Source: Trichocoleus sp. FACHB-46
GTDB taxonomy: Bacteria; Cyanobacteriota; Cyanobacteriia; FACHB-46
NCBI RefSeq assembly: GCF_014695385.1
Contig: NZ_JACJOD010000032.1
Location: forward strand, 62,001-126,000
Direction: 5' to 3'
Length of the DNA stretch: 64,000 nucleotides
The notes under the pieces are model-generated. The model saw only the letters and a program-made list of their open reading frames with translations, was not told the origin of the DNA and did no database searches. The translations under genes were made by a program, and so were the position numbers. This document shows, one piece after another, positions 27,255 to 32,052 of this stretch (its first letter is position 1; every line of letters starts with the position of its first letter).

Positions 27255-27456
27255 GCGGCTTTTGGTTTCACATACACCAATGACTATCTTACGACAAACC
27301 TGCTGCTGGCAGAGAACCCTGAAGTTGATGGTTCTAGGTTGAGACTGCGATCGCCTCTGTCCGCTGTTCAGTCTATGAACCTACACATGCAAGTGAGAGA
27401 AAACTTCTCAAGACAGCCATAGTAGAAATTAATCCACCCCTTTATGTGACTTTTCT

Positions 27457-28479
27457 ATGACCGTCGAGTCATTAGTACCTAAATTAACTTTTACAGAACT
27501 GACGGTAGAGAGTCCGTTGAGCGATCGCGACCGTCCTAAAATTGCTCTCGATCTGCTGCGATCGCTGCATGTTCTAGAAACAACACACCATAGCCGTTTA
27601 TGGGTCTTTATGGGCCTCTATAGCTTTGCTGCGGCTGCGGCTTGGGTTTTGGCGACTCACTGGGGTAGCTTTTGGTGCCTCTGGGCCTGTGTGCCACTCT
27701 ATATTTTGGCTGCTGCTGCTCTGCATGGCATCAGTTTGTTTACTCATGAAGGAGTGCATAGTGTCCTGTCTCCTCATCCCCATTGGAATCGTGGGCTAAG
27801 TATGGTTTGTGCGATGCCAGTCTTGCAGAATTATGCCGCTTATAAGATATTGCATCTCAAACATCACAAGCATCTGGGTGATCAGGGTGATCCTGACCAC
27901 TATAAAAACTATACCCATTGGAGTTGGTTAGTCTTCTTGATGCACTGGGGACGTTTATTAGTGGGTTATTCCGTTTATATTGTCGCAATTCCTCTGTTGG
28001 GGTTTTGGCAGGGAAATCGTCGCGATCGCCTGTGGATTGGGTTAGAAGTTCTATTGCTCGGACTGCTGATTGCAGGTGTGGTACTTTCTCCTATCCCGCG
28101 ATCGCTCCTGGTACATGGCTGGCTCATACCCATGTTATTGATCAATGGGATGGTCAATATTCGAGGCATGAGCCAACACACCTTACTAGAACATGAAACT
28201 GACTTAATCCGAGGCACGAGAACGCTTCTAACCAATCCTGTCACTCGCTTCTTTATGTGCAATGAAAACTATCACCTGGAACATCATCTGTATCCCGCTG
28301 TCCCTTGGTATCATCTTCCTCAACTCCACCAAGAGCTGCACGCAGAACTAGAATCTCGCGATGCACCTTATCTCCCTTCATACTTTGCTTTTGTTCGCGA
28401 GTTTGTGGTTGCTAGTATTCGTCGGACTTCTGTGGGTAGCGTCGCGCTGGTAACGCAAGGAGAAAAGCAGTCATGCTAG
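27457..28479 (+). CDS. Membrane-bound fatty-acid-desaturase-fold protein
   Basis: 340 residues with paired transmembrane helices and the histidine boxes of the desaturase/hydroxylase superfamily: HEGVHS (H97, H101), HLKHHKHLG (H133, H136, H137, H139), SQHTLLEH (H241, H246) and NYHLEHH (H273, H276, H277). The diiron centre inserts a double bond or hydroxyl into a lipid-like substrate. It is not a close match by eye to DesA-D or CrtR boxes, so the substrate is open. First gene of a four-gene run. Its stop overlaps the next start by 7 bp. Confidence 0.85.
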   Translation: MTVESLVPKLTFTELTVESPLSDRDRPKIALDLLRSLHVLETTHHSRLWVFMGLYSFAAAAAWVLATHWGSFWCLWACVPLYILAAAALHGISLFTHEGVHSVLSPHPHWNRGLSMVCAMPVLQNYAAYKILHLKHHKHLGDQGDPDHYKNYTHWSWLVFLMHWGRLLVGYSVYIVAIPLLGFWQGNRRDRLWIGLEVLLLGLLIAGVVLSPIPRSLLVHGWLIPMLLINGMVNIRGMSQHTLLEHETDLIRGTRTLLTNPVTRFFMCNENYHLEHHLYPAVPWYHLPQLHQELHAELESRDAPYLPSYFAFVREFVVASIRRTSVGSVALVTQGEKQSC

Positions 28480-29222
28480 AGCTACCGACCAAACTGTCAA
28501 CGCTGTCTTCCCTAATACCATCTGCACCCATATTGGTTTGCGAAGATCTGATCCAGTTCACCACGTTAGATGCTGCTGTTGCCCAGGTTGCAGCCGCATA
28601 TGATTTCCAACGTCATCCCTATTTCTGCTGGATGGTAGCCCCCGCGACTAGTCGAGAGGCTTTCTGCAACAGCCAATTGCCGTTCCGATTTGCTGTAGAG
28701 TCCTTCTCTCAGGCGCTAGCAGCCGTCCTGGCTAGGATTCCCAGTTTAGAAATGCGATTGGCGATCGCAGAGAATGTAGCTGAAGAACATGGGCATGGCG
28801 ATCGCTGGCGGTCTCACAAATACACATTCCAGCAGTATCTCCAGGCATTGGGGGCTACCAGCACTGGATTGACAAAGCCCTGCCCTACCTCTGTTTTAGC
28901 TTTCAATCAGGCTATCCTGAACTACTGTCTTACCCAACCTGCGGAGGTAGGAGCAGCGATGCTAGGGATGATCGAATATCTGTATGTGGGCATTAGTGCC
29001 GCGATCGCTCGAACCCTGACCCAGCGAGCATGGGTTGCGCCAGGTAGCCAATCGCACTATGCCGTACATGAAAAGCTAGATACTGAACATGCTCATGACT
29101 TATTGCAATTAGCGAGCCCTGGTTGGCAAGACGCTCGATCTCGTCTGTCTCTAGCTCAAGCCTTGCTATTAGGGGCACATTATTTTTGGAGCCTATATGC
29201 CGATTTGCTGCCCTCCCTCTGA
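28473..29222 (+). CDS. Haem-oxygenase-like diiron oxygenase (iron-containing redox enzyme family)
   Basis: 249 residues, all-helical TenA/HO-like fold. Candidate diiron ligands: an acidic helix at FRFAVESF (E76), the AENVAEEHGHGD segment (100-110), E168 in GMIEYLY, and H199-x3-D203-x2-H206 in YAVHEKLDTEHAHDL. The HxxxDxxH spacing is characteristic of HO-like diiron oxidases and oxygenases (the family of UndA, BesC and CADD), which desaturate, cleave or hydroxylate amino acids and fatty acids. The start overlaps the desaturase stop by 7 bp and the stop overlaps the DUF3419 start by 26 bp. This argues for a shared pathway. Confidence 0.78.
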   Translation: MLELPTKLSTLSSLIPSAPILVCEDLIQFTTLDAAVAQVAAAYDFQRHPYFCWMVAPATSREAFCNSQLPFRFAVESFSQALAAVLARIPSLEMRLAIAENVAEEHGHGDRWRSHKYTFQQYLQALGATSTGLTKPCPTSVLAFNQAILNYCLTQPAEVGAAMLGMIEYLYVGISAAIARTLTQRAWVAPGSQSHYAVHEKLDTEHAHDLLQLASPGWQDARSRLSLAQALLLGAHYFWSLYADLLPSL

Positions 29223-30321
29223 AATTGCTTTCTCCCAAGTCCGAGAAGATCCTTTGACTGAATGGCAACTGGTGGAGCGATTGGCGAAACAGCAGGAACG
29301 GCCATTACGGATCTTGTTGGTTGCTTCTGGAGGCTGTACAGCGCTGAGTTTGTTAGCCCATCCCGCGATCGCGCAGATTGATGCGGTCGATCTTAACCCT
29401 GCTCAACTGCATTTAGTTACACTCAAACTGACAGCTTTATTACATCTCTCTCTACCAGAGCAATTACAGTTGTTAGGAGCAGCATCCGATTCTCTTGAGT
29501 TTTTTGATGCCGCAGGGATATCTGAACTAGAGGCAGCAGCAAGCGATCGCCTCCAACTATACCAACGCTTACAGACTCACCTCCCTGAAGCAACACGTCT
29601 CTTTTGGGATGCTCGTCCGGACCAGATCGCTTTTGGAGTGAATCGAATTGGCAAGTTTGAGCAACTTTTTAGGGAGCTAGCAACTCGCTTTGCTGAACTG
29701 GGAATAGACCCACTTCATAACCCCCAAGCGGCAATGGCTCATCCCCACTGGTCAGCTGTGTTTGCAGCTGTATTCGAGCGAGACAAACTAATGCAGACTT
29801 TTGGCCCCGCAGCGGTGAGCTATTCTATGGATCGGAGTTTTAGCGAGCACTTTGCGAATGTGTTTGCTCAAGCTTTGCAACGATTTGCCCCTAATCAGAA
29901 CTACTTCTTGACGCAGGTATGGCGCGATCGCTATGCGCTTGGCTCCGACGGTGTGCCGCCTTATCTCCAAGCTGCGGTGCAAGAATCAATTCGTCAGTTA
30001 GGCACTTCACGGTTGGCACTGCATCTGGGGCCTTTTACAGAAGTCTTATTAAGGCTGATTCAGCAAGATGCTTACGATTTGATTCAATTCTCCAATATTT
30101 CTGATTGGATGCCGATTCCTAATCTACACAAAATGCTATCTACAGCAGCGACAAATTTGCGACCAGGAGGGATATTGCTGGGCAGGCGTCTGAACGGTGA
30201 TCATGATTTGGCGGCAATGATGGCTGAGCATGTTGCAGTTGATCGGCAGCTCAGCGCTGAATTACTGGCTAGCGATCGCTCCTATTTTTACCGAGAGGTG
30301 GTTGCAGGAGTGCGACTATGA
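29197..30321 (+). CDS. DUF3419 (BtaA-like) SAM-dependent aminocarboxypropyl-transferase-fold protein
   Basis: 374 residues. The SAM-binding part has RILLVASGGCTALSLL (39-53) and IDAVDLNPAQ (61-70). FWDARPDQIAFGVNRIGKFEQLFR, the YFLTQVW region, and the C-terminal FSNISDWMP with LRPGGILLGRRLNGD follow the DUF3419 pattern. The best-known member, BtaA, moves the 3-amino-3-carboxypropyl group of SAM onto diacylglycerol in betaine-lipid synthesis. The matching N-methyltransferase BtaB is absent here, so another acceptor or later step is likely. GGAG stands 6 bp before ATG 29197. Coupled at both ends (26-bp and 4-bp overlaps). Confidence 0.78.
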   Translation: MPICCPPSEIAFSQVREDPLTEWQLVERLAKQQERPLRILLVASGGCTALSLLAHPAIAQIDAVDLNPAQLHLVTLKLTALLHLSLPEQLQLLGAASDSLEFFDAAGISELEAAASDRLQLYQRLQTHLPEATRLFWDARPDQIAFGVNRIGKFEQLFRELATRFAELGIDPLHNPQAAMAHPHWSAVFAAVFERDKLMQTFGPAAVSYSMDRSFSEHFANVFAQALQRFAPNQNYFLTQVWRDRYALGSDGVPPYLQAAVQESIRQLGTSRLALHLGPFTEVLLRLIQQDAYDLIQFSNISDWMPIPNLHKMLSTAATNLRPGGILLGRRLNGDHDLAAMMAEHVAVDRQLSAELLASDRSYFYREVVAGVRL

Positions 30322-31118
30322 AATTTCATCGCCTGAGCTTAGAGGAGCGTCCACTGTGGCAATCTGGTATTGCTGCTATTGAGCAGATAGCTAGCTACCC
30401 TTTGGGAAATGACTTTTTTCAACTGGACCACGGATCGGATTACTTCGCCTTTTTTGACCGCTTAGGATCTGTCAATTACTATGTGGCGCTGGATGGCGAT
30501 CGCGTAGCGGCTGTGGGGGCAGGAGTTTTACGACAGGTAAAAACTCGGCGGGCAGAAGCTTTGCAGCCAGCTTGGTATCTGTGTGATTTGAAGGTTCATC
30601 CCCTTTACCAGAGACAGCAGCTCTCGATGCGGATTCTTAGCCATGCGATCGCGGATGGGTTGCCAACTTGTGTTACAGGATACACCATCTCCATGAATAC
30701 CGAAGATGGCAGTGCCAGTCGCTGGGTTCGCGTTCTAGAGCGATTTGATCAAATTGCTTTTTGTCGGGCAACGACACTTGGTATCTATAGCTGTGATGCC
30801 ATGACTATGCAGAAGCTAGAGCCGATACTAAATAAGCATCGTGGACCTATTACTTATCTCTCCCTCCAAGGAGTTAAAGATCTCCGCTTGCAGAGCACAG
30901 GCCAAATATTGCCTCTACTCCATGTGCAGTGGGGAGAAGGCAAAGTAGGGGCGATCGCAGTTCCCCAACCTGGATACACTCATATGTTTTGTGCTCCTAC
31001 AGAGGATGCTCTAGCCACAGAACTGTCAAGGCTCGAAGTATATCCTAGTGCAACCGCTAGTGTTGTGAGTCATGGGATGCAAAGCGACTGGCGATTTATT
31101 TTAACTAGTGATATTTAA
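30318..31118 (+). CDS. GNAT-family acyltransferase
   Basis: 266 residues. The first half has the GNAT core: a beta-strand NYYVALDGDRVAAVGAG, the motif-A strand WYLCDLKVHPLYQRQQLSMRIL (acyl-CoA pyrophosphate loop in the degenerate form QRQQLS) and a following helix. The second half is not recognised. GNATs acylate an amine, so in this operon it could act on an amino group introduced by the DUF3419 protein. That is inference from gene order. ATG overlaps the previous stop by 4 bp. Confidence 0.7.
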   Translation: MKFHRLSLEERPLWQSGIAAIEQIASYPLGNDFFQLDHGSDYFAFFDRLGSVNYYVALDGDRVAAVGAGVLRQVKTRRAEALQPAWYLCDLKVHPLYQRQQLSMRILSHAIADGLPTCVTGYTISMNTEDGSASRWVRVLERFDQIAFCRATTLGIYSCDAMTMQKLEPILNKHRGPITYLSLQGVKDLRLQSTGQILPLLHVQWGEGKVGAIAVPQPGYTHMFCAPTEDALATELSRLEVYPSATASVVSHGMQSDWRFILTSDI

Positions 31119-31305: not shown

Positions 31306-32052
31306 ATGACTTACTCACTGTTTCACCTGATTTTTATCTTGCCGCCCATTTTGTTGCTCGCCTTGCAGCAACCGCAACCCCTAGCAGGCGTGGGAGGTCG
31401 TAAAGCTGCGCTCTCTCTGCTCTTGATTGCTGCTGTAGCGTTTATCTACACGACACCTTGGGACAATTATCTAATTTGGCGCGATGTGTGGCACTATGGC
31501 CGCGATCGCGTAATGGGTACCGTTGGTTATGTCCCCATCGAAGAGTATTTATTTTTTGTGCTACAGCCGATTCTGACCGGGTTATGGCTATATCGGTTGT
31601 TAGCTCATACCGAGGAACCCAGCGAACTCAAATCTTCTCCCGCAGCCAATATAGGAGGAGCGATTATCTGGGCAGGTTTAGGTCTCGCGGGTGGTTGGTT
31701 ACTACAACGCGATTTTGGCGTTTATCTGGGGCTGATTTTGGTGTGGGCTAGCCCGATCCTAGCCTTGCAATGGTTGGTGGGCGGAGCACAGCTTTGGGTT
31801 CGCAAACGTCTTTGGCTCACCGCCACTTTAGTCCCCACTTTGTACCTCTGGATAGCCGATCGCATTGCCATTGGCCAAGGCATTTGGAGCATATCAGAGG
31901 TGTATACCACTAGGTTGCATTTATTTGGGCTACCTATTGAGGAAGCGACATTTTTCCTGGTAACAAATTTTTTAGTAGTACAAGGGTTATTGTTGCTCTT
32001 AGTGTTTAGTAAAGCCGACAAGCCCTTCCTCCAGACTGAGAGCGAGTTTTGA
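31306..32052 (+). CDS. Lycopene cyclase, fused CrtYc-CrtYd type
   Basis: 248 residues with about seven transmembrane helices and an internal duplication. Each half carries the CarR/CrtYcd signature: TPWDNYLIWRDVWHYG with VGYVPIEEYLFFVLQ in the first, and IADRIAIGQGIW with LFGLPIEEATFFLVTN in the second. The paired P-I-E-E motifs hold the catalytic Glu residues. Such proteins cyclise lycopene ends to beta rings and are usual in actinobacteria, Bacteroidetes, haloarchaea and fungi. Cyanobacteria mostly use CrtL or CruA instead. The gene lies 187 bp after the GNAT gene on the same strand. Confidence 0.85.
   Translation: MTYSLFHLIFILPPILLLALQQPQPLAGVGGRKAALSLLLIAAVAFIYTTPWDNYLIWRDVWHYGRDRVMGTVGYVPIEEYLFFVLQPILTGLWLYRLLAHTEEPSELKSSPAANIGGAIIWAGLGLAGGWLLQRDFGVYLGLILVWASPILALQWLVGGAQLWVRKRLWLTATLVPTLYLWIADRIAIGQGIWSISEVYTTRLHLFGLPIEEATFFLVTNFLVVQGLLLLLVFSKADKPFLQTESEF

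What the first reader, a model, noticed from the sequence alone, without database searches (positions are those of the whole stretch)
27457..31118. Four-gene overlapped operon: desaturase, HO-like diiron oxygenase, DUF3419 aminocarboxypropyl transferase, GNAT
Seen: overlaps of 7, 26 and 4 bp, histidine boxes in gene 1, HxxxDxxH diiron motif in gene 2, SAM-type GGCTAL and DLNP motifs in gene 3, a GNAT core in gene 4. Known: HO-like diiron enzymes act on amino acids and fatty acids, and DUF3419/BtaA transfers the aminocarboxypropyl group of SAM. Inferred: a pathway that makes an unusual amino-lipid or modified homoserine-type metabolite, not ordinary betaine lipid, since BtaB is missing. I know no described pathway with this set.
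Basis: partly seen in the sequence, partly recalled or inferred. Interest (0 to 1): 0.78.

Follow-up and report, generated by a model that had tools for sequence, protein, structure and literature searches.

The report
Undescribed four-gene cyanobacterial amino-lipid-type operon
Four overlapping genes that are inherited, and lost, as one block in scattered cyanobacteria (three of them also sit together on a Mycobacterium plasmid) look like a complete small pathway that attaches a piece of S-adenosylmethionine to an unknown molecule, oxidises it and acylates it; the product is unknown and I found no description of the pathway.

Summary
In detail: desaturase (27457-28479), HO-like diiron oxygenase (HDO, 28473-29222), DUF3419/BtaA-like protein (29197-30321) and a divergent GNAT (30318-31118), overlapping by 7, 26 and 4 bp. 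It is a real unit. The block is intact in 15 further cyanobacterial genomes with different flanks; in a 367-genome sample the same four genomes hold all four genes; the HDO/DUF3419 overlap persists in all 12 loci measured; two congeneric genomes lost the operon in one deletion that left a broken GNAT 3' end. DUF3419-HDO-GNAT recurs, followed by an MmpL transporter, on a Mycobacterium riyadhense plasmid. The DUF3419 model has a SAM-methyltransferase fold (pLDDT 91.6). The HDO has all six metal ligands but lacks the Tyr and Lys of p-aminobenzoate synthases. No BtaB is adjacent. Most likely: DUF3419 transfers the aminocarboxypropyl group of SAM to a hydroxyl, HDO oxidises the homoserine-ether head, GNAT acylates its nitrogen, the desaturase tailors the product. 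That chemistry is inferred; an amino lipid is favoured over a small vinylglycine-type antimetabolite mainly by context. No such pathway was found in the searched library (open-access papers only). New variant of a known kind; interest 0.6.

The parts
27457..28479 (+). Membrane desaturase/hydroxylase (340 aa), FA_desaturase superfamily; own clade, best curated model GntB-like but far below its cut-off
28473..29222 (+). Heme-oxygenase-like diiron oxidase/oxygenase (249 aa); ligands E104/E105, H115, E168, H199, D203, H206; lacks CADD Tyr27 and Lys152 equivalents
29197..30321 (+). DUF3419/BtaA-like SAM-dependent aminocarboxypropyltransferase candidate (374 aa)
30318..31118 (+). Divergent GNAT-fold N-acyl/acetyltransferase candidate (266 aa) with an N-terminal signature (YPLGxD..F...HGxDY..FF) shared with the Mycobacterium homologue
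29197..29222 (+). 26-bp overlap of HDO and DUF3419 genes; an overlap of 11-26 bp is present in 12 of 12 loci measured
27344..30914 (.). Segment missing in two genomes of the same genus (one deletion, same breakpoints), leaving a broken remnant of GNAT codons 200-266

Best explanation
A self-contained biosynthetic operon. Inferred reaction scheme: the DUF3419 enzyme displaces methylthioadenosine from SAM and transfers the 3-amino-3-carboxypropyl group to a hydroxyl of an acceptor, most likely a lipid, giving a homoserine ether. The HDO then oxidises that amino-acid head; N-oxygenation of the alpha-amine is my first guess, because a GNAT accompanies the HDO in both phyla. The GNAT acylates the (hydroxyl)amine. 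The membrane desaturase hydroxylates or desaturates the hydrophobic or head part; it is absent from the Mycobacterium version, where an MmpL transporter stands next to the genes. Shown: the unit, the folds, the metal ligands, co-inheritance. Inferred: substrates, order, product.
For: All four genes co-occur in the same 4 of 367 cyanobacterial genomes; the block is intact in 15 genomes besides the window, with unrelated flanks. Lost as one block within the genus. Distances of the four proteins correlate at r 0.91-0.96. Triplet DUF3419-HDO-GNAT plus MmpL in M. riyadhense. DUF3419 aligns with a canonical BtaA over its whole length (E 1.1e-28, 29% identity) with the SAM motif kept, and its model is a SAM-methyltransferase fold. 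Full six-residue metal-ligand set in the HDO; known HDOs act mostly on amino or fatty acids (PMC13108848). GNAT fold with Z up to 14.1. Other DUF3419 genes sit in lipid-type contexts, and the nearest desaturase kin sit beside a GH3 enzyme whose only curated hit is OlsH.
Against: No substrate, lipid or product data. The operon's DUF3419 clade is separated from the BtaA reference, so the acceptor need not be diacylglycerol. GNAT Pfam scores are below cut-off and the model is only moderate (pLDDT 74.8). The OlsH match is far below its cut-off (51.6 of 620 bits). Nothing in the sequence proves N-oxygenation; the solved HDOs nearest by sequence are p-aminobenzoate synthases and BesC. No exporter in the cyanobacterial versions. 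Only one non-cyanobacterial example of the triplet was found.
Confidence: 0.45

Rival explanations
1. Soluble antimetabolite of the oxyvinylglycine type (as rhizobitoxine): DUF3419 makes a small homoserine ether, the desaturase introduces the 3,4 double bond, HDO modifies the side chain, GNAT is a self-protection or finishing acetyltransferase.
For: The desaturase's best curated model is GntB, a free-arginine hydroxylase, not a lipid desaturase. The top structural match of the GNAT is the tabtoxin resistance acetyltransferase (Z 14.1, 2.9 A over 148 residues), though tied with many GNATs. From memory: rhizobitoxine's last step uses a desaturase-like enzyme, RtxC.
Against: The score for GntB is 60.8 of 380 bits needed, and unrelated cyanobacterial desaturases hit the same model. 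The nearest relatives of the desaturase lie beside GH3 genes in what look like lipid or amide clusters. RtxC itself was not available for comparison. The Mycobacterium triplet lacks the desaturase but has MmpL.
Confidence: 0.2
2. A special case of the best explanation: the genes make hydroxamate- or metal-binding amino lipids (a lipid metallophore). HDO N-hydroxylates the alpha-amine and GNAT acylates it to a hydroxamate.
For: HDO and GNAT accompany each other in both phyla, directly adjacent in Mycobacterium and separated only by DUF3419 in cyanobacteria. HDO N-oxygenases are established (PMC13108848). MmpL neighbour in Mycobacterium.
Against: No Fur-type site found upstream in any copy. The fourth carboxylate ligand typical of SznF could not be established: E76 is conserved in the cyanobacterial proteins but is Thr in the Mycobacterium and Streptomyces ones.
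Confidence: 0.15
3. Ordinary betaine-lipid synthesis: DUF3419 is BtaA, the methyltransferase (BtaB) is encoded elsewhere, and the neighbours are accessory.
For: DUF3419 is homologous to BtaA over its whole length.
Against: No BtaB beside any copy. In the window's own genome the best hit to Sinorhizobium BtaB is 36% over only 144 residues, one of 13 generic methyltransferase hits. Separate clade from BtaA. No conserved Pho-box upstream of 17 copies. Three co-inherited oxidation and acylation genes remain unexplained.
Confidence: 0.1
4. The HDO is a self-sacrificing p-aminobenzoate synthase (CADD/PabS type) and the operon belongs to folate metabolism.
For: CADD and PabS are the nearest solved structures by sequence.
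Against: Tyr27 aligns with Phe51 (a variable position) and Lys152 with Ile178; no lysine is nearly invariant in the HDO alignment. TIGR04305 scores 20.8 of 200 bits.
Confidence: 0.03
5. Carotenoid tailoring: the desaturase is a carotenoid hydroxylase or ketolase working with the lycopene-cyclase-like gene downstream (31306-32052).
For: TIGR03462 lycopene cyclase domain gene 187 bp downstream; weak CrtR and CrtW hits for the desaturase.
Against: The cyclase gene is not next to the operon in any other cyanobacterium examined, while it stays in place in congeners that lost the operon. CrtR score 39 of 475.
Confidence: 0.03

Closest known systems
BtaA/BtaB betaine lipid (DGTS) pathway; Sinorhizobium reference L031
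   Same: DUF3419 enzyme with the SAM motif, 27.5-29% identity over the whole length
   Different: No BtaB; separate DUF3419 clade; co-inherited HDO, GNAT and desaturase
HDO superfamily (CADD/PabS, BesC, UndA, SznF, MboA, PolF)
   Same: Iron-containing redox enzyme family with a complete 3H/3C ligand set
   Different: No CADD self-sacrifice residues; no partner genes of any described HDO pathway found here
Mycobacterium riyadhense plasmid cluster DUF3419-HDO-GNAT-MmpL (L027), itself undescribed as far as I found
   Same: Homologues of three of the four genes adjacent on one strand; same GNAT N-terminal signature
   Different: DUF3419 first in order; no desaturase; MmpL transporter; only 27-33% identity
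GntB (guanitoxin L-arginine gamma-hydroxylase) and related membrane desaturase-like hydroxylases
   Same: Desaturase superfamily, histidine boxes, best curated model
   Different: Score far below the curated cut-off; different neighbours
GH3-dependent lyso-ornithine-lipid synthesis (OlsH, PMC12493201)
   Same: A GH3 enzyme whose only curated hit is OlsH sits beside the nearest relatives of the desaturase (G108; a GH3-like gene also in G233)
   Different: No GH3 in the window operon; match far below cut-off; these neighbours are not part of the operon

Membership tests
DUF3419 (PF11899) / BtaA-like | Pfam score above the curated cut-off | tested here: met
   116 bits against 28.2
DUF3419 (PF11899) / BtaA-like | SAM-dependent methyltransferase-type fold with glycine-rich motif | tested here: met
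   Model pLDDT 91.6; best Z 13.5, 2.6 A over 157 residues; S44, G46, D65, N67 invariant
DUF3419 (PF11899) / BtaA-like | Transfers the aminocarboxypropyl group of SAM | not testable with these tools
   Needs an enzyme assay
Betaine lipid (BtaA+BtaB) pathway | N-methyltransferase BtaB fused or adjacent | tested here: not met
   No such gene beside any copy; only generic methyltransferase hits in the genome
HDO superfamily | PF14518 above cut-off | tested here: met
   63.1 bits against 28.9
HDO superfamily | Three-His/three-carboxylate metal ligand set | tested here: met
   E104/E105, H115, E168, H199, D203, H206 align with CADD E81, H88, E142, H174, D178, H181 and are invariant in 21 proteins
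HDO superfamily | Binds a dimetal cofactor and activates O2 | not testable with these tools
   Needs purified protein
HDO of 3H/4C (SznF) type | Extra Glu ligand from an auxiliary helix | tested here: inconclusive
   E76 conserved only in cyanobacterial copies; no SznF alignment obtained
CADD/PabS p-aminobenzoate synthase | Self-sacrificed Tyr27 and amine-donor Lys152 | tested here: not met
   Phe51 and Ile178 at these positions
GntB arginine hydroxylase (NF041365) | Curated equivalog cut-off | tested here: not met
   60.8 of 380 bits
FA_desaturase superfamily (PF00487) | Pfam cut-off and three histidine boxes | tested here: met
   134 bits against 29.7; boxes invariant in 17 proteins
GNAT superfamily | Pfam acetyltransferase cut-off | tested here: not met
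   Best 17.8 of 25 bits; the Mycobacterium homologue reaches 21.5 of 20.7 for Acetyltransf_1
GNAT superfamily | GNAT fold | tested here: met
   312 PDB chains at E <= 0.001; Z up to 14.1; model pLDDT 74.8
Rhizobitoxine-type oxyvinylglycine pathway | RtxC-like desaturase and RtxA homologue | not tested
   No reference sequence was at hand

The most novel reading that the evidence does not exclude
A new class of N-oxygenated, N-acylated homoserine-ether lipids (possibly hydroxamate metallophore lipids), made by a minimal DUF3419-HDO-GNAT core that occurs in cyanobacteria and mycobacteria, with an optional desaturase.
Probability: 0.15. Interest if true: 0.8.

Novelty: new variant of a known kind. 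Interest (0 to 1): 0.6.

Why it matters
If the scheme holds, it extends BtaA-type aminocarboxypropyl transfer beyond betaine lipids and gives a compact, four-gene (perhaps three-gene) system in which an HDO acts on a SAM-derived amino-acid head. Such a small, sharply bounded operon, present in some and cleanly absent from other members of one genus, makes product discovery by comparing strains directly feasible. The same core on a mycobacterial plasmid next to an MmpL transporter raises the question of an unrecognised mycobacterial lipid.

Tried and rejected
Regulatory sites: no Pho-box, NtcA or Fur-type site shared upstream of 17 copies; promoter and terminator scans no better than shuffled sequence. 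Viral contigs: no HDO relative. Plasmids: only Mycobacterium carries the triplet; six Streptomyces plasmids carry a related HDO, and the two annotated ones opened show no DUF3419 or matching GNAT beside it. The small unassigned protein beside the GH3-cluster desaturase in G108 is not detectably related to the operon's GNAT. No solved structure matches the DUF3419, GNAT or desaturase sequences in a meaningful way. L009 has DUF3419 and GNAT only, with unrelated sequence in place of the other two; L004, L012, L017 and L019 are cut by contig ends; G108 has a lone HDO. Literature: no paper in the open-access library joins DUF3419 with HDO-type enzymes; subscription papers are not covered. The rhizobitoxine comparison could not be run for want of a reference sequence.
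Full report
WHAT IS THERE. The window carries four genes on the + strand: desaturase 27457-28479 (340 aa), HDO 28473-29222 (249 aa), DUF3419 29197-30321 (374 aa), GNAT 30318-31118 (266 aa), with overlaps of 7, 26 and 4 bp. Pfam confirms the first three above cut-off; the GNAT is below every GNAT cut-off by sequence, but its model (pLDDT 74.8) matches GNAT structures, best Z 14.1 with 2.9 A over 148 residues, tied with many others.

IT IS A UNIT. A pattern scan of one genome per species, followed by tblastn, found the block in many cyanobacteria. With the window and the whole-genome searches, 16 genomes hold all four genes in the same order and strand; the incomplete ones are cut by contig ends, except L009, where unrelated sequence replaces desaturase and HDO, and G108, which keeps a lone HDO. 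No flanking gene is shared beyond close relatives. In a sample of 367 cyanobacterial-phylum genomes, the operon-type DUF3419 (over 55% identity), desaturase (over 60%) and GNAT (any match) occur in the same four genomes, from four families, and the operon-type HDO in those four plus G108. The HDO/DUF3419 overlap of 11-26 bp is present in all 12 loci measured. Pairwise distances of the four proteins correlate at r 0.91-0.96, though shared ancestry alone contributes to that. dN/dS is 0.11-0.25 in two close pairs.

LOSS AS A BLOCK. Two genomes of the same genus lack the operon. In both, sequence homologous to window position about 27343 continues at 30915, leaving the last part of the GNAT gene (codons 200-266) with stops and a shifted frame; the lycopene-cyclase-like gene downstream remains. 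The shared breakpoints suggest one ancestral deletion. So the operon was there before and went as a whole, rather than having been inserted only in this strain.

OUTSIDE CYANOBACTERIA. A Mycobacterium riyadhense plasmid has DUF3419-HDO-GNAT followed by an MmpL-family transporter (27, 32 and 33% identity to the window proteins; MmpL). The GNATs share a distinctive N-terminal signature (hhalign E 3.5e-12). The desaturase is absent there, so I regard it as accessory. This is a single example; other phyla could be reached only through plasmid records.

THE ENZYMES. DUF3419: model pLDDT 91.6, SAM-dependent methyltransferase fold (Z 13.5), full-length homology to a canonical Sinorhizobium BtaA, but a separate clade (several long branches). 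HDO: E104/E105, H115, E168, H199, D203 and H206 correspond to the six CADD ligands and are invariant; the CADD residues Tyr27 and Lys152, named in PMC11965152, are Phe51 and Ile178, so it is not a p-aminobenzoate synthase of that type. According to a review (PMC13108848) characterised HDOs act mainly on fatty or amino acids, by N-oxygenation, C-C cleavage, desaturation or rearrangement. Desaturase: its closest relatives outside the operon (38 and 34% identity) lie in G108 and G233 beside a GH3-type enzyme; the only curated hit of the G108 GH3 is the lyso-ornithine-lipid synthetase OlsH, far below cut-off (OlsH: PMC12493201).

HOW IT PROBABLY WORKS. Inference: SAM gives its aminocarboxypropyl group to a hydroxyl acceptor (DUF3419), the amino-acid head is oxidised (HDO) and its nitrogen acylated (GNAT), and the desaturase tailors the product. 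A lipid acceptor is favoured by BtaA homology, by the lipid-type neighbours of other DUF3419 genes (lipid kinase, AMP ligase, UbiA), by MmpL in Mycobacterium and by the membrane desaturase. None of these proves it. The main rival is a small vinylglycine-type antimetabolite.

AGAINST ORDINARY BETAINE LIPID. No BtaB is adjacent in any copy, the genome's best BtaB hit is a partial 36% match among 13 generic methyltransferase hits, and no Pho-box is shared upstream.

NOVELTY. Each enzyme family is known; the combination is not described in the open-access library searched, which does not cover subscription journals. I therefore call it a new variant of a known kind (a biosynthetic operon), not a categorically new system.

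Noticed in passing
L073 (Roseinatronobacter plasmid), L058, L060, L064, L066, L067: A different recurring DUF3419 neighbourhood: UbiA prenyltransferase, PEP/pyruvate-binding protein, DUF3419, a ~450 aa membrane protein, a GNAT-like protein and an AMP ligase, in various subsets; function unknown to me.
   Followed up: partly
L128 256-9390 and L129 5240-15999: Cyanobacterial clusters with a GH3-type enzyme, a relative of the window's desaturase, a ~250 aa unassigned protein, a large RnfD/UnbV-like protein and (in L129) a Rieske protein.
   Followed up: partly
31306-32052: Two-repeat lycopene-cyclase-domain protein (TIGR03462, 145.8 bits) right after the operon; it persists in congeners that lost the operon.
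   Followed up: no
G000:C6:38937-39434: A second PF14518 (iron-containing redox enzyme) gene in the same genome.
   Followed up: no
L009 7000-8000: In a Pseudanabaena MAG the desaturase and HDO genes are replaced by unrelated sequence while DUF3419 (5' end lost) and GNAT remain; decay or an assembly joint.
   Followed up: partly
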